Assembly: GCA_023055355.1 (NCBI GenBank)
Contig: JALJCS010000002.1
Span: 83,911,001-83,975,000, forward strand
Direction of reading: 5' to 3'
Origin: Agelaius tricolor
Taxonomy: Eukaryota > Chordata > Aves > Passeriformes > Icteridae
DNA: 64,000 bases
Shown: positions 5,558 to 34,559 of the stretch, piece by piece
Position numbering within the stretch: the stretch's first letter is position 1
How the letters are laid out: the number at the start of each line of letters is the position of its first letter
The notes under the pieces: model-generated
Told to the model about the DNA's origin: nothing
The model's database searches: none
The model's input: the letters and a program-made list of their open reading frames with translations, nothing else
Made by a program: the position numbers and the translations under genes

Positions 5558-5600
<43 letters not shown>
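5558..5600 (+). repeat. Poly-A tract of 43 A
   Basis: An uninterrupted run of 43 A. Avian CR1 elements do not end in poly-A, so it is not obviously a LINE tail. I see no clear retroposed body or target duplication around it. Confidence 0.95.
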
Positions 5601-24908: not shown

Positions 24909-24914
24909 TCATGG
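24909..24914. repeat. Target site duplication, left copy
   Basis: Reads tcatgg, directly abutting the TG terminus of the left LTR. It is identical to 33567-33572. Six-bp duplications are usual for alpha- and betaretroviral integrases. Removing the provirus and one copy gives a continuous pre-integration site. Confidence 0.93.
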
Positions 24915-25573
24915 TGTCCCAGTCTCTCTGCAAGCCTCTCGAGTCCCTGGGCCTTACCCGGGTCGGCAGAGAGTGGGGGGGGTAGCCCCACCACGGCCGA
25001 CTGCGGGGAGACACTCTCTGTGCCCCGAGGGTGCTGAGGGCACTCAGGCTGGTTGCCTTCGTTGCAGCAGAGACGACCGAGACGTCGGTGGAAGAGGAAA
25101 GGGGCCGACTCCCAGCAGGGGATATTCCAAGGTTTTATTAAGGAGTCCCGAGGGAGCTCCTATACCTCAGGGGGTCCTCCTGCCGAGAGCGCTGGGGGAT
25201 GTTCGAAGCTTACATTTAAAGGGGGGAGGAAACTAACATAGATAAAATCCTACTGACCAATAGGTATCTCTGGGGGATGGGTGCTGGGGGGACAGACATA
25301 CAAAGCAGAGTATGGGGCAGGACTTGGGGGGTTGACCCTTGGCCCCTGGCTAATCACTCGACAACTTGGACCGAAACTTCTCGGTAGGGGGCTGGGATGC
25401 CGAGGTGACTGGCAGAGAGCCAGGGTGGGGGTTTTGGAGATCTTATCCCAGGAAAGGGATAACACAAAAGGAGGGGGGGGGGGTGCAGTCTGGGATAAAC
25501 CATTTGGGAAAAACATGGGAATACAAAACCAACTACTTCAAGGTATTACAAAATATAAGAACGCACTACAACA
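24915..25573 (-). repeat. 3' LTR of the provirus (659 bp)
   Basis: The same sequence as the 5' LTR, with 11 rather than 10 C in the viral-sense homopolymer. It is preceded in the viral sense by a polypurine tract. Its AATAAA (25139-25134) would direct polyadenylation of viral RNA. The matching TATA-like motif is at 25215-25220 and the inverted CCAAT at 25257-25261, so it could also fire outward into the left flank. Confidence 0.95.
25134..25139 (-). terminator. Polyadenylation signal in the 3' LTR
   Basis: AATAAA on the minus strand, about 76 nt downstream of the TATA-like motif, in the position expected for the R region. The same hexamer in the 5' LTR is 33128-33133; how the promoter-proximal copy is ignored cannot be seen from the sequence. 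Confidence 0.75.
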
Positions 25574-25587
25574 TCTCCCTCTTTTCG
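25574..25587 (-). other. Polypurine tract
   Basis: In the viral sense CGAAAAGAGGGAGA directly abuts the TG of the 3' LTR, the place where plus-strand DNA synthesis is primed. The 54 bp between it and the env stop (25588-25641) hold nothing I recognise. Confidence 0.88.
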
Positions 25588-25641
25588 TTTAAATAAAAAG
25601 GGAAGAGGCACCTAAACATTAAATTTCAGCTCGGAGTGCTA

Positions 25642-26934
25642 TCAATCATCAGCAAACCAAGGCTGTTTTGTAAATTCTGCAGAGGTTTCTGTCCCTTCCT
25701 CAGAAGAGGTGGGAACAGTCACCTGATTGACCTCTAAAGGGGAAATAGCTTTCGAGATCAGTTTGGTCACAATGCTCTTGATGATCCCAAAACTGATCAA
25801 AATAACAAGAAGAACAAGCAAAACTAAAAATACAGATTTCAAAATGGATTTGACCCAGCCCGAGAGTCCCCATCCCTGAAAGAGTCCATCCATCCAGTCC
25901 GCTGTTTCTTGCTTGATGTCTTGGACCATTTGTTGCATCTTCCCGATGATTTTGTGGACATTTTCAGCTTTGGATGACAGATTCAGGCAACAGAGACCTT
26001 CAAACTCCTCACAACGATGATTATGTAGCAGGAGGAGAAAATCAATTGCAGCCCGATTTTGTAGGGTGGCTTGCCTTGTTGTTTCATCGTCTGCCAGGAG
26101 GTCTGAAAGTGCGGCTGATGTAATATTGGCCTGTTTAGCAACCCAACACTCTAGATGTGATAATTCGCCTAGAGCTTTAGCTGCAGACACCCATGGCAAA
26201 AACACGGTGATCGCAACCCCTTTTGGTTTGGACCAATGTACAATTTCAGAATCGCAATTTGGGTCCAGATTCTTTAAATCTCTCTTTTTGCGGGCCGAAT
26301 TGCGGGTGTTGGTTTTGGTTCGCCAATCCATAATTTGGGTTTTGTTGGGTGTAAACAGGCTCAGCTTTCCAATGGTGCATGGACCTCCGATTAGACGAGA
26401 GGGGATGCCTGCCCATGCCCTGTCCCCGCAAATGAGGAAAAACCCCTTAGGAAGGGCACGGGGCTTATTATCAGGGGTAGAAGGTATTCCTACTTGGGAA
26501 ATTTTCTTACACCAAATTTTTGCTGTATAATTCACTTTAAACTGTTTGACTTCATGGTACAAATCTACTTGATCTTTTGGTGTAAATGTAAACTGAACAC
26601 AATAGAATGCCTTGGCAGAACCAAGGAGTTCAAATTCTTGGGGTTCTTTTTCTGCTACTGCTTGTCTATCAATTAATTTTGACCAAGGGGATAACGGATT
26701 ATATACTGGGGGAAGGGGAGCAGCTAATGTTGGCGGAAACTCATCATATTTGGATGGGATCCCCACAAGGCAAGTGGACATCGGGTCAGACACAGAAGAG
26801 GCTGACAGGCAAATGTGGTCTTGGTTGAGGACTCTGGCGAGGGTGGTCCACACATTTGCTTGGGGCTGTGGAACAATCCACATCTGACCTGGATGGACGG
26901 CTGTCAACAGAAGCAACGGAAGGATGGGGCTCAT
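25642..26934 (-). CDS. env: Envelope glycoprotein, short, alpharetrovirus-type TM (430 aa)
   Basis: A membrane fusion glycoprotein precursor. It starts at ATG 26934 with A at -3. Signal peptide about 1-17; SU about 18-218, with cysteines 42, 55, 112, 142, 169 and 186 and possible N-glycosylation at 135 and 197; furin-type RKKR at 215-218; TM 219-430. The TM has an internal hydrophobic fusion-peptide region bracketed by C227 and C263, a heptad-like stretch, the LQNRAAIDF segment from 291 (immunosuppressive-domain position), CX6CC at 308-316, sugar sites at 270 and 318, a membrane span at about 361-388 and a tail of about 40 residues. The internal fusion peptide and CX6CC are alpharetroviral traits, not those of a typical betaretrovirus. 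SU is about half the usual size, and overall length is well below the roughly 600 aa common in these families, yet the frame is open and cleanly bounded. Confidence 0.93.
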   Translation of the reverse strand: MSPILPLLLLTAVHPGQMWIVPQPQANVWTTLARVLNQDHICLSASSVSDPMSTCLVGIPSKYDEFPPTLAAPLPPVYNPLSPWSKLIDRQAVAEKEPQEFELLGSAKAFYCVQFTFTPKDQVDLYHEVKQFKVNYTAKIWCKKISQVGIPSTPDNKPRALPKGFFLICGDRAWAGIPSRLIGGPCTIGKLSLFTPNKTQIMDWRTKTNTRNSARKKRDLKNLDPNCDSEIVHWSKPKGVAITVFLPWVSAAKALGELSHLECWVAKQANITSAALSDLLADDETTRQATLQNRAAIDFLLLLHNHRCEEFEGLCCLNLSSKAENVHKIIGKMQQMVQDIKQETADWMDGLFQGWGLSGWVKSILKSVFLVLLVLLVILISFGIIKSIVTKLISKAISPLEVNQVTVPTSSEEGTETSAEFTKQPWFADD

Positions 26935-26980
26935 TCTGATGACACCAGGGCTGAGTTCAGATCAAAGGAAAACACTAAAA

Positions 26981-27000
26981 CTGAAAATAAAAAGTGTTAG
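26981..27000 (-). promoter_or_regulatory. Putative env splice acceptor
   Basis: In the 98-nt gap between the pol stop and the env start the minus strand has a branch-point-like CCTAAC, then CTTTTTATTTTCAG ending at 26981. No AUG lies between this acceptor and the env AUG, so env would be the first good start on exon 2. Confidence 0.65.
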
Positions 27001-27030
27001 GGATGAGGTCCAGGTAACAACAATTTAACT

Positions 27031-30000
27031 TTAAAGAGTCTGACGGCGCTTCCTCCTCCAGCAGGCACTGGCTACCTGTGTTGCAGCTTTGTCCTTTGAC
27101 ACCTTAGGAATGTACGGTCTCACCCACCTGGAGGGGATCCATCTCAAGCCTGAGGGAGTGGATACGCACGCATATCCCCTACCCCAGACTACGAGCTCAT
27201 GGGGCCCCTCTATTTTCCAAGTTTCAGGGTCCTTTATGAGGACTGGCGGACGGACTTTTAATTTGTGCTGACTGTTCTCGTTAAAATGTCTTACAATAGG
27301 TGGGTTAAGGTTTTCAAAGGTACAGTTCAAAAAGTTCAGTGTGAACAGCGCTTTGGACAGCTGGATTTGAGGGGTCTCTGTTTTCATCACTTCACGTTGT
27401 CGGTGAAGAACCTTTTTTAGATTCTGATGGGCTCTCTCCACCACAGCTTGGCCTGTCGGGGAATAGGGGATGCCTGTTTTGTGTTCTATTCCCCATTGCT
27501 GCAGGAAGCTCTGAAGGTCTTTGGACTTGTACGCTGGGCCATTGTCTGTTTTGATGACCTTAGGGATTCCTAATGTGGAAAAGGCTTGCATGAAATGCTT
27601 CTTTACCTCACTGGCCTTCTCCCCTGTGTGGGCAGAAGCATAGATGGCACCAGAAAAGGTATCCACGGAGACGTGGACATATTTAAATCTGCCAAATGAT
27701 GGGATGTGGGTTACATCTGTCTGCCACACTTCGCAGCTCTGCAAGCCCCTAGGGTTTGCACCTGCACTTAAGGTAGGTAGTGACTGATTTTGACAAGAAG
27801 GGCAGGTGGCTACGATGGCCTGGGCTTGTTTGTGCTTCAGATGGAATTGTCGGACCAAGGCAGGTGCATTCTGATGAAAAAATTGATGACTGATCTTTGC
27901 TTGTTGGAATACCTCTGGGAGCGGGGCCATCTTGGCTGTAGCCGCAAGGGCATCAGCTTTCCGGTTACCTTCTGCAATGAACCCCGGCAGGTCTGTGTGT
28001 GACCTAACATGCATCACATAAAATGGGTGTTCTCGGCCAGAAATAATTCTTACTAACTTAGAAAGTAATTCATATAAAGGAATGTTGGAAACTTCTTGCA
28101 ACACAGCATTCTCTGCCCTAGACACTACACCTGCAACATAAGCTGAATCAGTAACCACATTTAAAGGCTCAGGAAACTTCTCAAAAGCTCTGACTACAGC
28201 GGCCAACTCAGCAATTTGGGGTGATCCTTCCACCTTGGCAATATCTGCTTCCCACTGTTGAGTTTGGGGATCTTTCCAAGTTACCACTGACTTGTGAGAC
28301 GCACCAGACGCATCAGTAAAAACTGTCAGTGCTTTTAGAGGTGTCCTGCTCTGAATACTTGTCAGTGATAATGAAAACTGAACATCTGAGTTGAAAATTT
28401 TGTGGGCCGGTCTGTGAATTGAAATTTGGCCTGTGTAGCTATCTAGGGCTAATTGCAAGGCTTCATTCTCTTGATAAAATTGCTCTAGCATTGCTTGAGA
28501 CAAATGGCCTGATTTCAGGTTTAAGGAAATGTAAATGCAGTCAAAGTCACACCCTGCCAATTCTCTGATCCGAATCCTTGCTTTCCGGATCAATTCTGCC
28601 ATCAGCTCTTGTGGCATTGTCATCCTTTTTGACCTGTTGTGACTGAGAAAGACCCACTCTATAATTAAGAGGGGATCTTTCTTGACCTGGTCCTTTTTCT
28701 TTGCCTGGACAGTTTCCCACTGAAAAATCATACCATGGAGATGTGGCAATTTGCCTAAGATGATAAATTTGAAGGGGAGACCCTGCTGGCACCTGTGGGC
28801 CTGTCTAGTAGACATGATTTCCTGAACTTTCTCCAGTGCGGTTTTCGCTTCCTGGGTGAGGGTCCTAGGAGCACTAAGGTCATCTCCCCCTTTTAACAAA
28901 TTGAAAAGGGGGGCTAGGTCTTCGGTGGAAATGCCTAGCCAAGGTCTCACCCAATTTAAGGATCCACAGAGTTGATGGAGATCCGCTAAGGTTTTGATAT
29001 CATGTTTGATAGTCAATTTTTGCGGCACAATGGTCCGCTTTCCAATTTCAAGGCCCAGGTACTTCCAAGGTGGCATCTTTTGAATCTTTTCTTCTTGGAG
29101 CTCGAACCCTGCAGCAACCAATGCATTGATTGTCAGGTCAAGTGTGTGAGTAAGCATGTCATCACTTGGGGCACACACCAGGATGTCATCCATGTAGTGC
29201 AGGATGATGGAATCTCCTGCAGCTTCACGGACTGGAGACAACAAGGAAGAGACATACCTCTGGCAAATCACAGGACTGACTTTCAGTCCCTGAGGGAGGA
29301 CGGTCCAATGGTATCTCTTCATTGGGGCCTCCAGGTTAATGGTGGGAACCGAAAAGGCAAAACGCGGAGCATCGTCAGGATGTAGGGGAATGTGAAAAAA
29401 ACAATCTTTGATGTCAATTACAGCTAAAGACCAATTTTGTGGAAGCATGCTTGGGGAGGGCATCCCTGGTTGTAGGGAGCCCATGTCCTCAATAACGTTG
29501 TTGATTTGACGGAGGTCATGGAGTAGTCTCCACTTGTCTTTGTTTGGTTTTTTAATGACAAAGACAGGCGAATTCCACGGCGACGTGGTCTCCACAATGT
29601 GACCTTTTTCTAACTGCTCTTGTACAAGTTCTTCAAGCGCCTTTAATTTGGTTTTGTTGAGCGGCCACTGAACTACCCTTATTGGAGTATCAGTTTTCCA
29701 AATCAATTTTTGGGCGTGGCGCACCTCAGCGACCGCTCCCCGAAAAACCTGCGGGTTTTCTGGGATGTCAATTGTGGTTCCCCATTGAACCATTAAATCT
29801 CTGCCCCAGAGGGGCTCTGTGTAGTCTAAAACAAACGGGCGAATGGAAGCCATTTTGCCATTGGGTCCCTCAATTTGAACAACGTTTTTTGACTGTCTTG
29901 CCAATTGAATTCCCCCTACACCTTGCACGTGTCCTGCTACGTTTTGCAATTCCCAGTGTGATGGCCACTCTTTAGATGGAATAATCGTGACATCTGCTCC

Positions 30001-30660
30001 AGTATCTAAAAGTCCTTGTATGGACTTGTACTCGCCACCACGGTGTAAGCCACATGATAGCTTGGGTTTTTCTTTTCCCAATACCTGAGTCCAGCAGACA
30101 TTGGGAAGGAGTTTACCTCTGAGGGTATTTGCTTGCTCCTGGTCCCATGGAGGCTCAGGTACTGGGATGGCTTGGGCTATGATTTGGCCTTTGGGCAAGT
30201 ACACGGGTGGATGAGTACAGTGAAGCCATATGACAAATTGTTTCGGGTCTGATGATATGAGACCCGGAGGAATAATAATTTCTTGGGGTGTGTGTTTTGT
30301 GTCCCCAAGGACGACATACTTACTGTGACGCTTCTGGCAAAGCTGTGTCCAAGTACCTGGTTGTTCAGGGTTAACAGATATGAAATGCCAGTTAGTGTCT
30401 CTGAGATGAAGAGGTTCGGTCAACGCCAGCCTGTAAGGATTATGTGAAGAGTCAGTGGTTAAAATTGGTCTGGGATTATTCCAATGAACTGAATGTTCTG
30501 TTTTGTTCAAAGCCAGTGCCTCGCTTGGCACCGATACATCTTTTACACTAGATTTCTTTTCCCTCCCCCGTACTTGAATTGAGCCCACCCTATTTTTGTC
30601 ATAGCGCTGGGGAAAGGAGCGCTCTTTACTCAGTTTTTTGAGAGGTGGTCCTTTGGGCAA
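27031..30660 (-). CDS. pol: Pro-Pol polyprotein (protease, RT, RNase H, integrase)
   Basis: Made as Gag-Pro-Pol by -1 frameshifting; residues are counted from the TTG at 30660, which is not a true start. Order: a segment at 74-170 weakly like a retroviral dUTPase, ending in PKGQIIAQAI; aspartic protease at about 200-295 with LDTGAD (catalytic D219) and GRDL near 287; reverse transcriptase at about 310-610 with D416 and YMDD at 489-492; RNase H at about 776-910 with D783, E818, D838 and D903; integrase from about 910 with zinc ligands H925, H929, C953, C956, catalytic D982, D1039, E1075 (35 residues between the last two), and a tryptophan-rich C-terminal domain. It ends in a basic tail, WRRKRRQTL. 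There is no G-patch after the protease and no frame change between pro and pol, unlike typical betaretroviruses. No stop codons or missing catalytic residues. Confidence 0.96.
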   Translation of the reverse strand: MPKGPPLKKLSKERSFPQRYDKNRVGSIQVRGREKKSSVKDVSVPSEALALNKTEHSVHWNNPRPILTTDSSHNPYRLALTEPLHLRDTNWHFISVNPEQPGTWTQLCQKRHSKYVVLGDTKHTPQEIIIPPGLISSDPKQFVIWLHCTHPPVYLPKGQIIAQAIPVPEPPWDQEQANTLRGKLLPNVCWTQVLGKEKPKLSCGLHRGGEYKSIQGLLDTGADVTIIPSKEWPSHWELQNVAGHVQGVGGIQLARQSKNVVQIEGPNGKMASIRPFVLDYTEPLWGRDLMVQWGTTIDIPENPQVFRGAVAEVRHAQKLIWKTDTPIRVVQWPLNKTKLKALEELVQEQLEKGHIVETTSPWNSPVFVIKKPNKDKWRLLHDLRQINNVIEDMGSLQPGMPSPSMLPQNWSLAVIDIKDCFFHIPLHPDDAPRFAFSVPTINLEAPMKRYHWTVLPQGLKVSPVICQRYVSSLLSPVREAAGDSIILHYMDDILVCAPSDDMLTHTLDLTINALVAAGFELQEEKIQKMPPWKYLGLEIGKRTIVPQKLTIKHDIKTLADLHQLCGSLNWVRPWLGISTEDLAPLFNLLKGGDDLSAPRTLTQEAKTALEKVQEIMSTRQAHRCQQGLPFKFIILGKLPHLHGMIFQWETVQAKKKDQVKKDPLLIIEWVFLSHNRSKRMTMPQELMAELIRKARIRIRELAGCDFDCIYISLNLKSGHLSQAMLEQFYQENEALQLALDSYTGQISIHRPAHKIFNSDVQFSLSLTSIQSRTPLKALTVFTDASGASHKSVVTWKDPQTQQWEADIAKVEGSPQIAELAAVVRAFEKFPEPLNVVTDSAYVAGVVSRAENAVLQEVSNIPLYELLSKLVRIISGREHPFYVMHVRSHTDLPGFIAEGNRKADALAATAKMAPLPEVFQQAKISHQFFHQNAPALVRQFHLKHKQAQAIVATCPSCQNQSLPTLSAGANPRGLQSCEVWQTDVTHIPSFGRFKYVHVSVDTFSGAIYASAHTGEKASEVKKHFMQAFSTLGIPKVIKTDNGPAYKSKDLQSFLQQWGIEHKTGIPYSPTGQAVVERAHQNLKKVLHRQREVMKTETPQIQLSKALFTLNFLNCTFENLNPPIVRHFNENSQHKLKVRPPVLIKDPETWKIEGPHELVVWGRGYACVSTPSGLRWIPSRWVRPYIPKVSKDKAATQVASACWRRKRRQTL

Positions 30661-32468
30661 TTCTGGTTTTTAAGCATATTGTATTTAAAGTCTAAAAACT
30701 GCTTTTTCAGAGGGCAGCCAGGCATCCAATGCCCCAACTTCCCACAAAGATGGCAAGGTCTATTAGAGCTGGAGATTCTCTCTTGTGGCATCGCGACATG
30801 CTGGAGCTGGCTGGTAAATGGTGGCTCAGGGGTTTCCACTGCAGCAATCCTCCTCTGTGGTTTTGGTCTCTCGTCGTGGTCAGCGAGGGTAATGGTAACT
30901 TTCCTCTCACACACTTCAAGCATGGCCTGCAGCGTAGGCGTTGGGTCAAGAGGCAGGCTGAGGATAGCAGCTTTGCACTTCTCATTGGCATTTTCTTTAG
31001 CAATTTCGGTGAGGATTTCCATCCTGGCTCCTTCATTCTGAACTTGCAATTCAACAGCTTTTCTCAACCTTTCCACAAAACTCAAAAAGGACTCAGATGG
31101 AGATTGTGTTATTTTCAAATAATTTTCAATTGGAATACTAGGACGGAGCCCAAAGAAAGCTTTCTCAGCTGCTCTAGCACCTTCTCTGAAAGCCCTTGTG
31201 GGAATGCTTTCTGCCTGGATCACGCTGTCTTCCCAACCTCCCTGTCCACAGAGGTGATCGAGGGATAACATATTACCATAAACATCACGAGCAGTAGCTT
31301 CATCAGCCCACAGAGCTGGTAAAATTGCTCTCAATCCTTTTTGCCATGCAACATCCCACAAGAGATATTCAGAAGAGGATAACAGGCAGGAAAAAAGGTG
31401 TTTTATATCAGCAGGGGTTAAAATGTGAGCGAATAATGTAGCTTTAAGGAGCCCTCTAAAATATTCACTTGATCTCCCAAAATCTTTTTGGGCTTTGGCT
31501 AGTTCTTTAACAGAATCAACAGAAAGGGGGCTATAATTTGGCTGGAATGCCCCGGTGGCATCTGGAATATATGAGACAGGGGCAGCAGAAAAGGACTGTG
31601 CTGTTTCCGGGTTGTGACTCCCAGCGACAGCGTCTCTTATTACACTGCCCTGAGGGCCGGAGGGCGGGCCGTGGGGGGGGCGGAGGGAGCCCGCGGCGGG
31701 CGGGCAGAGCTCTGAGGGGGCGGGGGCGGCCGGGGCCAGAGCGGGAGGGGCGGCCGGGGCCGGGGGAGGAGACGGGGGAAGGGCGGGAGGGCGGGTTTCG
31801 GGGGCGGGGTGCTCCGAGCAGAATGGGTTGTTGGGAGAGCGAAAGGGATTATGGGAAAGAGAGGAAACCACCATTGCCACGTGGTGTCCGCCATTATGGT
31901 CCGGGGAAGTTACCGGGCGCGTCTCAGGGGTACCAAGGCGGGCACAAAGGTTGTGAGACACGGTATTATAACTTGTGGAAGCAGGGGGGAGGGTGGGATT
32001 TCGGGAATTCAGGGCAGAAGTGTCCGGGTTGGAGACAGGGAACTTCTGGGGGGGAGCAGGGGTTTGTGCAGGGGCTGGGAGTGGGGAAAGGGGGGTGGGG
32101 GAGAGAGAACCGAACTCGGAGGGGGGTAGATCGGGTTTCTGGGGAACAGAGATATTGAAACTGTTGCCGGATGGCTGTTCTTGCATTTTTAAATTAAATT
32201 TTACAACATTTCTTATCTGCAGGGCTAAAAAAGCAAATTTTGACGGAGAGGTGTCTCCTGCTTTCCCTGCCTTCAATAATTCACTGCCAATTTTGTCCCA
32301 AAAAGCCAAATCACTGAGATTTTCAGTGGACACGTCAGGGAAGTGAAGGAAAAGCCATCTGACGAACTGTTTAACATCTGTTTTTGAAAATCGGATTTTT
32401 TCACTCTTAAGAATGTTTAAGAGATGATAATAGACACCCTTGTGAGATACAGAAAGCCTAGCACCCAT
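30630..32468 (-). CDS. gag: Gag polyprotein (612 aa)
   Basis: Encodes the structural polyprotein that assembles the virion at the membrane. The start is set at the ATG at 32468 rather than a TTG ten codons upstream: it has A at -3 and G at +4 and yields MGARLS, an N-myristoylation signal. Order: matrix (about 1-95, resembling the betaretroviral p10 type); a long proline/alanine-rich linker (about 100-274, densest 221-274); capsid from about 310, with a major homology region at 455-468 (Q, E, F, R, L positions kept); nucleocapsid with one CCHC knuckle, CHLCGKLGHWMPGC, at 572-585. Most alpha- and betaretroviruses have two knuckles. I see no clear PPxY, PTAP/PSAP or YPxL late motif. The frame closes with TCA AAA AAC TGA, a slippery site against the stop. 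No internal stops. Confidence 0.95.
   Translation of the reverse strand: MGARLSVSHKGVYYHLLNILKSEKIRFSKTDVKQFVRWLFLHFPDVSTENLSDLAFWDKIGSELLKAGKAGDTSPSKFAFLALQIRNVVKFNLKMQEQPSGNSFNISVPQKPDLPPSEFGSLSPTPLSPLPAPAQTPAPPQKFPVSNPDTSALNSRNPTLPPASTSYNTVSHNLCARLGTPETRPVTSPDHNGGHHVAMVVSSLSHNPFRSPNNPFCSEHPAPETRPPALPPSPPPAPAAPPALAPAAPAPSELCPPAAGSLRPPHGPPSGPQGSVIRDAVAGSHNPETAQSFSAAPVSYIPDATGAFQPNYSPLSVDSVKELAKAQKDFGRSSEYFRGLLKATLFAHILTPADIKHLFSCLLSSSEYLLWDVAWQKGLRAILPALWADEATARDVYGNMLSLDHLCGQGGWEDSVIQAESIPTRAFREGARAAEKAFFGLRPSIPIENYLKITQSPSESFLSFVERLRKAVELQVQNEGARMEILTEIAKENANEKCKAAILSLPLDPTPTLQAMLEVCERKVTITLADHDERPKPQRRIAAVETPEPPFTSQLQHVAMPQERISSSNRPCHLCGKLGHWMPGCPLKKQFLDFKYNMLKNQNCPKDHLSKN
30633..30639 (-). 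promoter_or_regulatory. -1 ribosomal frameshift site A AAA AAC
   Basis: The heptamer sits in the gag frame as A AAA AAC, with the gag TGA as the very next codon. pro-pol is in the -1 frame and has a TAA at 30672-30670 and no AUG in the 40-nt overlap, so frameshifting is required. After a 9-nt spacer comes AGCGCT (30623-30618), a 9-nt loop, and AGCGCT again (30608-30603), a 6-bp hairpin. Loop bases UUUCCC could pair with GGGAAA at 30563-30558 to make a pseudoknot. The heptamer is of the type used at betaretroviral gag/pro junctions. The structure was judged by eye. Confidence 0.85.
31640..31830 (+). other. GC-extreme, G-run-rich segment within gag
   Basis: The plus strand (antisense to gag) carries many closely spaced GGG-GGGGG runs with very few A/T. 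In the sense direction it encodes the proline/alanine-rich Gag linker. The plus strand could form G-quadruplexes; the viral RNA would be C-rich here. It explains the long antisense frames seen in this stretch. Confidence 0.7.
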
Positions 32469-32657
32469 TTTGGCTCTGATTTTAAATTTGTATCTCAAAT
32501 TTCAGCAACCCAGGTGGGGGGGGGAGGAGAAAAGCCTACAGCTGGCAGCCTGCCCACAATAGAGAGAAAAAAAACTTCAGCCCTCCGCGGCAGGGCTGAG
32601 AACAAAGGGCAGGGAAACACCCCCTCCCAAAGAGGGGAAAAACAAGAGAAGGGTAAA

Positions 32658-32664
32658 ACTTACC
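32658..32664 (-). promoter_or_regulatory. Putative major splice donor
   Basis: Minus strand TTG|GTAAGT, with the intron starting at 32663. It fits the donor consensus well and lies between the primer site and gag, the usual place for a retroviral major donor. Pairing it with the acceptor at 26981 would yield env mRNA. Confidence 0.65.
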
Positions 32665-32740
32665 AATCCAACTGCAGGAGAGGGGAACGAAAAAGCCTGG
32701 GATGTTGATTTCCACCTAAAGCTGACTTCTTAGGGTACAT
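32660..32740 (-). CDS. Leader uORF, 26 codons
   Basis: The only AUG I find between the inferred cap site and the gag start. It opens at 32740 and reads 26 codons to a TAA at 32662-32660. That stop is formed by the bases of the splice donor GTAAGT itself. In spliced env RNA the frame would cross the junction and end at a TGA ahead of the env AUG. The AUG context is weak (C at -3), so scanning past it is plausible. Leader uORFs are known in other retroviruses. Whether this one is translated is unknown. Confidence 0.35.
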   Translation of the reverse strand: MYPKKSALGGNQHPRLFRSPLLQLDW

Positions 32741-32886
32741 AAGAAGCTCCCAGCTTCGTCCACAGGAGAGCAACTCACTAAAACGGAGTTTTTTCTTTCC
32801 TGAGGTAGCTTGCCGGCCGAAGGCTTATCGAACAGACTGAAAGTATGTCCGAGCCCCTTTCCGTGGGCTCCTGGAATGGTTCCAGA

Positions 32887-32905
32887 GCCCCACGGCTGGG
32901 CGCCA
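32887..32905 (-). other. Primer binding site, tRNA-Lys type
   Basis: Three nucleotides after the 5' LTR the minus strand reads TGGCGCCCAGCCGTGGGGC. Its first nine bases and last seven match the site complementary to tRNA-Lys(CUU) (the Lys1,2 type used by several betaretroviruses), but one extra base and a substitution lie in the middle. It therefore fits a Lys primer imperfectly, or a host tRNA isodecoder with a slightly different acceptor stem. Confidence 0.8.
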
Positions 32906-32908
32906 AGC

Positions 32909-33566
32909 TGTCCCAGTCTCTCTGCAAGCCTCTCGAGTCCCTGGGCCTTACCCGGGTCGGCAGAGAGTGGGGGGGGTAGCCCCACCACGGCCGACTGCGG
33001 GGAGACACTCTCTGTGCCCCGAGGGTGCTGAGGGCACTCAGGCTGGTTGCCTTCGTTGCAGCAGAGACGACCGAGACGTCGGTGGAAGAGGAAAGGGGCC
33101 GACTCCCAGCAGGGGATATTCCAAGGTTTTATTAAGGAGTCCCGAGGGAGCTCCTATACCTCAGGGGGTCCTCCTGCCGAGAGCGCTGGGGGATGTTCGA
33201 AGCTTACATTTAAAGGGGGGAGGAAACTAACATAGATAAAATCCTACTGACCAATAGGTATCTCTGGGGGATGGGTGCTGGGGGGACAGACATACAAAGC
33301 AGAGTATGGGGCAGGACTTGGGGGGTTGACCCTTGGCCCCTGGCTAATCACTCGACAACTTGGACCGAAACTTCTCGGTAGGGGGCTGGGATGCCGAGGT
33401 GACTGGCAGAGAGCCAGGGTGGGGGTTTTGGAGATCTTATCCCAGGAAAGGGATAACACAAAAGGAGGGGGGGGGGTGCAGTCTGGGATAAACCATTTGG
33501 GAAAAACATGGGAATACAAAACCAACTACTTCAAGGTATTACAAAATATAAGAACGCACTACAACA
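32909..33566 (-). repeat. 5' LTR of the provirus (658 bp)
   Basis: On the minus strand it begins TGTTGTAG and ends GGGACA. Reading in the viral sense: a U3 with a C-run (10 C), an inverted CCAAT box (33251-33255), a TATA-like TTTAAA (33209-33214), then AATAAA (33133-33128) about 76 nt downstream, and a CpG-rich U5 of roughly 200 nt. The short TATA-to-AATAAA spacing implies a short R. This copy would drive transcription. It is followed by the primer binding site after three nucleotides. It matches the 3' LTR at every position except the length of the homopolymer. Confidence 0.95.
33209..33255 (-). promoter_or_regulatory. Core promoter of the 5' LTR
   Basis: In the viral sense an ATTGG (inverted CCAAT, 33255-33251) lies about 40 nt ahead of a TATA-like TTTAAA (33214-33209). 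Transcription would begin some 25-30 nt downstream, near 33180, placing the AATAAA at 33133-33128 inside R. The start site is inferred from spacing only. Confidence 0.6.
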
Positions 33567-33572
33567 TCATGG
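33567..33572. repeat. Target site duplication, right copy
   Basis: Reads tcatgg immediately after the CA terminus of the right LTR and matches the left copy exactly. Lack of divergence between the copies agrees with a young insertion and argues against LTR recombination with another locus. Confidence 0.93.
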
Positions 33573-33627
33573 AGCCCACAGTTCCTGTAATGAACATTAG
33601 GCACACAACTGTAGTGTTTATGTCAGC

Positions 33628-33996
33628 CTGGAAAAGAGAAGGCTCTGGGGTGACCTAATTGCAACCTTCCAGTACTTACAAAAAACATGGAGAGAGACTG
33701 TTTGTAAGGGCATGCAGTCACAGGACAGCAGGGAATGACTTTACTCTGGAATAGAGTAGGCTTAGGTTAGATATTAGGAAGAAATATCTTCACCCTTAGA
33801 ACTGTGAGGCACTGGAACGCATCACCCAGAGTAGCTGTGGATGCCCTATCCCTGGAAGTTTTCAAAGCCAGATTGGATGGGGTTCTGAAAAACCTGGTAT
33901 ACTGGAAGGTGTCTCTGATGGTGGCAGAGGGCTTAGAACTAGAAGATCTTTGTGGTCCCTTCCAACCCACAACAATTTTTAGATTCTGTGGTAGAT
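33628..33996 (+). mobile_element. CR1 LINE fragment (3' part)
   Basis: Begins gtcagcctggaaaagagaag, passes ttaggttagatattaggaag and agctgtggatgccctatccc, and ends cccttccaacccacaac then agattctgtgg, closely following the CR1 3' UTR. It lies 56 bp beyond the provirus duplication and is on the opposite strand to it. Confidence 0.9.
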
Positions 33997-34559
33997 TCCC
34001 TCTGTAGTTACAGGAAATGAGGCACCTTCAGAAGGGAAATCATATAATAGCAATCACCAAAGACTATTGTCATTCTCCCTTTACTTATATGTCAATTTAG
34101 TATGTTTACTGGGGCATTACAACAGATATTTCAAGTTAGATGGCCAAAAGCAGAACAGGAGGGCCAGGTAGGCTACTGTAGACACTTAAGATGATGAATT
34201 CAGAAGAAAGAACTGTAAGAACTGTCCTTAGACCACTGAAAGGTGCTAAATAGCTGTCAAAGTGAAGAAATATTCATGACCATTTCATTAGGAACCTGCC
34301 ATCATAGTTAAACCAGTGTCAACCCACTACAACTCTCCAAAACCGATCGCTTGTGGTGGATATCACATAGGAACCACAGCTACAGAATGTGCAACTCTTT
34401 TGGACTTTGGGCCCATCAAGAGGATGTATGGTGATCTCCATATGCTGATGGAGATCACAGATTCCACTCCCTTCAGAGCAAGGAGAACAAGTTTGGTCTT
34501 CCACATCTCACCTGCAAGTTGGTCATCAACATGGACTCTCCATATCTTTCTTGTGTTGG
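33997..34559. other. No recognised gene; one perfect hairpin
   Basis: Non-coding. Contains an exact 11-bp inverted repeat, gtgatctccat (34431-34441) and atggagatcac (34448-34458), separated by 6 nt. Nothing else is recognised. Confidence 0.6.

What the first reader, a model, noticed from the sequence alone, without database searches (positions are those of the whole stretch)
24909..33572. Structurally complete, very young provirus with all three reading frames open
TG/CA ends, a matching 6-bp duplication, primer site, polypurine tract and uninterrupted gag, pro-pol and env with key catalytic residues are all visible. By eye the two LTRs show no substitutions over about 658 bp, only one homopolymer length difference. 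If the neutral rate is about 2-3e-9 per site per year (an assumption), one difference would be expected per roughly 0.3 million years, so insertion is recent and may still be polymorphic in the species.
Basis: partly seen in the sequence, partly recalled or inferred. Interest (0 to 1): 0.85.

Follow-up and report, generated by a model that had tools for sequence, protein, structure and literature searches.

The report
Young, coding-intact songbird endogenous retrovirus
A songbird genome, very probably that of a blackbird-family species, carries a recently inserted retrovirus copy with all its genes still open, built from a betaretrovirus-like core and an envelope gene of the chicken-leukosis-virus type.

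Summary
A class II provirus lies on the minus strand: LTRs 24915-25573 (659 bp) and 32909-33566 (658 bp), no substitutions, one G-run length difference, flanked by TCATGG duplications. Gag (612 aa), pro-pol and env (430 aa) are uninterrupted, with PR, RT, RNase H and IN domains and PR, RT and IN catalytic motifs present. Zero substitutions bound the age at about 1 My for an assumed 2.3e-9/site/year, if no LTR conversion occurred. Polymorphism could not be tested.

The host is a songbird: Env differs at 2 of 430 residues from an Agelaius phoeniceus protein and at 18 of 430 from a Molothrus ater one. So this is a young copy of a multi-species lineage, not a lone newcomer.

It fits neither genus. 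Ordinary as an insertion; a useful variant of avian class II retroviruses.

The parts
24909..24914 (.). target-site duplication TCATGG, left copy
33567..33572 (.). target-site duplication TCATGG, right copy
24915..25573 (-). 3' LTR, 659 bp, TG...CA
32909..33566 (-). 5' LTR, 658 bp, identical to the 3' LTR but for one G-run length; AATAAA at LTR position 434
32887..32905 (-). primer-binding site, tRNA-Lys1,2-like with a bulge, 3 nt after the 5' LTR
   Evidence: sequence read; the tRNA assignment is recalled
30630..32468 (-). gag, 612 aa, starts MGARLS, one CCHC zinc knuckle at residue 572
30633..30639 (-). slippery heptamer A AAA AAC in the gag frame, directly before the gag stop TGA
   Evidence: no significant fold in the 80 nt from it
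27031..30669 (-). pro-pol open frame (-1 to gag): dUTPase-like, PR, RT, RNase H, IN in one frame
30136..30456 (-). dUTPase-fold domain N-terminal to PR, catalytic motifs eroded
   Evidence: sequence alone is not significant
25642..26934 (-). env, 430 aa: SU about 218 aa incl. signal, RKKR cleavage site at 215-218, Cys-flanked internal fusion loop (C227-C263), CX6CC at 308-316, membrane anchor
26981..26981 (-). candidate env splice acceptor (last base of TTTTTATTTTCAG), 47 nt upstream of the env ATG
   Evidence: sequence inspection only
25574..25586 (-). polypurine tract GAAAAGAGGGAGA abutting the 3' LTR

Best explanation
It is a recently integrated, coding-intact copy of a songbird class II (ERV2/ERVK) endogenous retrovirus lineage, in the germ line of an icterid or very close relative. 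Shown: paired near-identical LTRs, 6-bp duplication, three open frames with PR, RT and IN catalytic motifs, close relatives of env in Agelaius and Molothrus. Inferred: the LTR drives one full RNA; gag is translated directly, pro-pol by a -1 shift at A AAA AAC, env from a spliced RNA using an acceptor near 26981; a Lys-type tRNA primes reverse transcription; the copy arose by reinfection or retrotransposition within roughly the last million years and may still make proteins. The core is betaretrovirus-like and the Env is alpharetrovirus-like, a combination carried by the lineage and not made at this locus.
For: LTR identity and duplication; open frames and domains; CpG observed/expected 0.42-0.45 inside against 0.069 outside; Env 428/430 to an A. 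phoeniceus protein (a cluster of 11 member sequences) and 412/430 to a M. ater protein; gag 75% to a Molothrus aeneus protein with the same start motif, single knuckle and ending. IN: best entries 237 bits (MMTV labels recalled), RSV-type 165 (label recalled) and 132 for 1c0m (named RSV, a shorter construct), lentiviral-type about 107. PR: best 50 bits (MPMV labels recalled), RSV 36. Env TM: ASLV entries lead at 62 bits; EAV-HP, RSV and ALV Env lead the fold list. 15 of 245 database proteins match both pol and env of this element, among them P0188, P0126 and P0138 with dUTPase-like, PR, RT, IN and env stretches (IN only 39 aa in P0188; env 205 and 149 aa in the other two).
Against: The age rests on an assumed rate and on no LTR conversion. 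The primer site is not a perfect match to the recalled Lys site. No PPxY, P(S/T)AP or YPxL motif was found in Gag, so particle release is uncertain. No transcript or particle evidence exists here. The 80 nt from the slippery site fold no better than shuffles (z -0.24). The Env model has low confidence (mean pLDDT 56). The capsid does not discriminate: best 53 bits to an unnamed Gag (8c9m), HERV-K 46, an RSV Gag entry 45 (label recalled). HIV-1 PR tethered dimers scored 46 bits, above RSV PR, though single HIV-1 chains scored about 30.
Confidence: 0.9

Rival explanations
1. An older insertion whose LTRs were made alike by gene conversion, so that LTR identity understates its age.
For: Cannot be excluded from one locus (no call bears on it directly); only one copy of the site was available.
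Against: All three long frames are open and CpG content is far above the flanks, both hard to explain in an old, methylated insertion (inference).
Confidence: 0.07
2. The copy is intact to the eye but its lineage now spreads only inside cells, by retrotransposition, with Env unused. (Not exclusive of the best explanation.)
For: No canonical late motif found in Gag by pattern; imperfect primer site (Lys site recalled).
Against: env is open and near-identical to proteins of Agelaius and Molothrus. Selection could not be measured without relatives' DNA, so this is weak.
Confidence: 0.3
3. env was taken over by the host (a syncytin-like or receptor-blocking role), which keeps the frame open.
For: A conserved retroviral env gene with a proposed host role is described in birds (Ovex1, passages of PMC5006616).
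Against: gag and pro-pol are equally open and the LTRs are identical, so no selection is needed to explain an open env.
Confidence: 0.03
4. Assembly artefact.
For: Young repeats can be collapsed or misplaced (general knowledge); the only LTR difference is in a G-run, a common error site.
Against: The 6-bp duplication matches at both ends, and no other LTR or element coding sequence lies in the window.
Confidence: 0.02

Closest known systems
Agelaius phoeniceus LOC129118529 and Molothrus ater LOC118701493 (Env proteins, databases)
   Same: 428/430 and 412/430 residues; the same lineage
   Different: Another copy or allele; two residues (221 and 430) are private to the window among the three
Avian 'alpha-beta' intermediate class II ERVs of Jern et al. 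2005 (PMC1224870, passages read)
   Same: Avian host, dUTPase N-terminal to PR in some members (21 of 67 in chicken), no G-patch
   Different: That paper reports a -1/-1 frame pattern for its beta-like intermediates of chicken and reptiles and two NC zinc fingers for the main beta branch; here -1/0 and one knuckle. Env of that group was not described in the passages I saw
Bird ERVs with class II gag-pol and a (non-avian) gamma-type env, cited in PMC3758190 (passages); original paper not held
Alpharetrovirus (RSV/ALV, EAV-HP)
   Same: Env: Cys-flanked internal fusion loop, CX6CC, no CXXC in SU, sequence and fold matches
   Different: gag-pro-pol: dUTPase-fold domain, pro in the pol frame, PR and IN nearer betaretroviral-type entries
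Betaretrovirus (MMTV, MPMV) and HERV-K
   Same: PR, RT and IN similarity, dUTPase position (several virus labels recalled)
   Different: No G-patch, one zinc knuckle, no pro-pol shift, alpha-type Env

Membership tests
Class II ERV (ERV2/ERVK) | 6-bp target duplication with TG...CA LTR ends (criterion as in passages of PMC6523648) | tested here: met
Class II ERV (ERV2/ERVK) | YMDD reverse transcriptase related to class II retroviruses | tested here: met
   YMDD at residue 492; best solved relative 7sr6, 430 bits (HERV-K label recalled)
Betaretrovirus | gag, pro and pol in three frames (-1/-1) | tested here: not met
   pro and pol share one frame, 27031-30669; dUTPase-like, PR and RT in this order in 63 of 63 database proteins holding all three, out of 245 (gene models may join exons)
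Betaretrovirus | two NC zinc knuckles | tested here: not met
   one CCHC in the window Gag; one strict CCHC each in the 9 of 245 proteins with a knuckle-like motif
Betaretrovirus | dUTPase N-terminal to PR | tested here: inconclusive
Betaretrovirus | G-patch after PR (mammalian members) | tested here: not met
   pattern absent in the window and in 245 of 245 proteins
Betaretrovirus | beta-type Env (CXnC, no CX6CC) | tested here: not met
   CX6CC present
Alpharetrovirus | avian gamma-type Env: CX6CC and a Cys-flanked internal fusion peptide | tested here: met
   definition from passages of PMC3758190
Alpharetrovirus | pro in the gag frame (0/-1) | tested here: not met
   the 0/-1 pattern from a passage of PMC1224870
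Alpharetrovirus | pol nearer RSV than betaretroviruses | tested here: not met
   IN 165 versus 237 bits, PR 36 versus 50 bits; no RSV RT entry was seen among the 60 of 359 rows shown, and no tree was built
Avian alpha-beta intermediate ERVs | phylogenetic position between alpha- and betaretroviruses on Pol | not tested
   no reference Pol sequences were fetched

The most novel reading that the evidence does not exclude
A still-circulating or very recently circulating songbird retrovirus group, separate from both genera: betaretrovirus-like core with a non-catalytic dUTPase-fold domain kept as a structural part, one-knuckle Gag and -1/0 translation, carrying the alpharetrovirus-type Env; a relative of the stock from which alpharetroviruses, and perhaps their Env, came.
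Probability: 0.2. Interest if true: 0.7.

Novelty: new variant of a known kind. Interest (0 to 1): 0.4.

Why it matters
[quoted passage not shown] A coding-intact class II element with a betaretrovirus-like core and that Env, young and with relatives in several songbird species, gives a concrete lineage on which to test that idea. It also offers a candidate insertion polymorphism in a wild bird.

Tried and rejected
Host as a marsupial: suggested to me by the flank CpG ratio of 0.069; I read the outline and the first two of seven parts of PMC11334065 before a CR1-like repeat was read beside the element and one search showed songbird relatives. Dropped.

Truncated SU: the SU is short (about 218 aa), but the relatives aligned have SU regions of broadly similar, mostly somewhat greater length, so I do not take it for a deletion of this copy.

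dUTPase by sequence alone: Pfam dUTPase E 0.15 for the window piece, below cut-off, and no dUTPase row in 5 of 5 relatives; PDB sequence search gave no dUTPase among 13 weak hits. Only the fold comparison supports it. PR in that model is poorly predicted (pLDDT under 50 for most of 122-248).

Env fold: model of low confidence, TM-scores of the first five hits 0.10-0.34; those hits lean on sequence as much as on fold.

Viral contigs: two scans, no relative. Rfam: 0 families at gathering threshold. tRNA genes: 0. The self-comparison for repeats printed nothing; the repeat of it returned two rows, no dispersed repeat. No gene was identified in the flanks: 10 of the flank frames had no Pfam match at E 0.1. 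The three-letter GPY/F pattern is absent from pro-pol and present in 33 of 245 proteins; uninformative.

Literature: the 10 searches listed no paper that I recognised from title or abstract as describing this lineage; one search listed 20 of 65 and 20 of 24. The library lacks most subscription journals, and two papers by Henzy and co-workers that I think bear on it are not held. In PMC11009239 only one short passage was seen.

Late motifs in Gag: absent by pattern; absence is weak evidence and was not pursued.

Changes made on re-checking this report against the calls: a count of env-matching proteins was dropped as circular (most came from the env search), virus labels that were recalled are now marked, and the HIV-1 PR and Pfam results against my reading were added.
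Full report
What is there. The window holds one provirus on the minus strand. Its LTRs, 24915-25573 and 32909-33566, align without a substitution; the single difference is 11 against 10 G in one run. TCATGG flanks it at 24909-24914 and 33567-33572. On the coding strand the order is: 5' LTR, a Lys-like primer site (32887-32905), gag (ATG 32468, stop 30630), pro-pol (open from 30669 to 27031), env (26934 to 25642), a 13-nt purine tract and the 3' LTR. No other copy of the LTR or of its genes lies in the window.

Are the genes intact? Pfam marks Gag p24 N and C, retroviral protease, RT, RT thumb, RNase H, IN zinc, IN core and IN C-terminal domains, and in env Avian_gp85 and, exactly at its cut-off, TLV_coat. 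DTGA, YMDD, the IN HHCC and D-56-D-35-E are present. Gag begins MGARLS. Gag ends with A AAA AAC followed at once by the stop, with pro-pol open in the -1 frame. Folding 80 nt from the slippery site gave no structure beyond shuffles; that tool does not predict pseudoknots (my understanding of it). A good acceptor sequence lies 47 nt upstream of the env ATG. Results against full competence: the primer site departs from the recalled Lys1,2 site, no strong splice donor pattern was printed for the leader, and no PPxY, P(S/T)AP or YPxL motif was found in Gag.

Age. With 1316 LTR sites and no substitution, the 95% upper bound is 0.99 My at 2.3e-9, 1.5 My at 1.5e-9 and 0.57 My at 4e-9 per site per year. 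These rates are assumptions; passages of PMC9995274 report a more than 120-fold spread among vertebrate species, with the two lowest in birds of prey, under 0.18e-9, at which the bound would be about 13 My (my arithmetic). LTR conversion would defeat the method. An independent sign of youth is CpG content: observed/expected 0.445 in the LTR and 0.424 inside, 0.069 in about 55,300 flank bases.

Host and lineage. I first took the low CpG for a marsupial; that was wrong. The best Env match is an Agelaius phoeniceus protein (428/430; its cluster holds 11 sequences), then Molothrus ater (412/430). The A. phoeniceus protein differs at residues 221 and 430, where Molothrus agrees with Agelaius, so it is another copy or allele; the species of the window itself is not proven. 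The closest Gag, from Molothrus aeneus, is 75% identical and has the same single knuckle and a like beginning and ending. Only 5 Gag hits were found, perhaps because the words used fell in low-complexity parts. Pol hits in the 120 rows shown of 426 were mostly 60-78% identical. The A. phoeniceus and M. ater Env proteins differ from each other at 16 of 430, so the lineage looks older than this insertion.

Mosaic make-up. IN scores 237 bits against the best entries (MMTV labels recalled), 165 against the best RSV-type (label recalled; 1c0m, named RSV and shorter, 132) and about 107 against lentiviral-type ones. PR scores 50 against MPMV-type entries (labels recalled), 46 against HIV-1 tethered dimers, 36 against RSV (2rsp, named) and about 30 against single HIV-1 chains. 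Capsid does not discriminate. Env TM matches ASLV TM first (62 bits), then filovirus GP2 (about 30 bits). Its features (C227 and C263 around the fusion loop, CX6CC at 308) meet the avian gamma-type definition in PMC3758190 (passages), which said that type was then known only in alpharetroviruses. The combination is not peculiar to this copy: 15 of 245 returned proteins match both pol and env. Of these 15, P0096 has only a weak RT match (31%) and no IN match, and P0184, P0176, P0200, P0241 and P0173 have env matches under 100 aa; gene models may also join exons. The 245 are the rows listed by three searches, not all hits.

Placing it. By tested traits it is a class II ERV, but it fails defining traits of both Betaretrovirus and Alpharetrovirus (see the membership table). 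Jern et al. 2005 (PMC1224870, passages) described chicken alpha-beta intermediates, with dUTPase in 21 of 67 and no G-patch; this element resembles them but has one knuckle and a -1/0 pattern. No Pol tree was made here. Full-length ERVs are common in birds (in a table passage of PMC8310711, zebra finch has 298 or 552 on autosomes by two methods), so a young intact copy as such is ordinary.

Verdict. Observation confirmed; interpretation partly supported, with polymorphism untested. The value lies in the lineage rather than in the single insertion.

Noticed in passing
window 30136-30456: dUTPase-fold domain before PR with eroded catalytic motifs, shared by songbird relatives (40 aligned, window included).
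   Followed up: partly
window 30630-32468: Gag has a single CCHC knuckle and no PPxY, P(S/T)AP or YPxL motif by pattern.
   Followed up: partly
window 32887-32905: Primer site resembles the recalled tRNA-Lys1,2 site but with a one-base bulge and a mismatch; which tRNA primes is unknown.
   Followed up: no
window 33620-34000: CR1-like repeat remnant ending in ATTCTGTG at 33983, just right of the provirus; recognised by eye from recall.
   Followed up: partly
window 1-24908 and 33573-64000: Very low CpG ratio (0.069) at 41% GC; no gene identified in the flanks (10 frames scanned).
   Followed up: partly
window 5558-5600: Run of 43 A; Tandem Repeats Finder lists only five arrays in the window.
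   Followed up: no
window 31511-32158: A 215-codon open stretch on the strand opposite gag, perhaps a by-product of gag's codon use.
   Followed up: no
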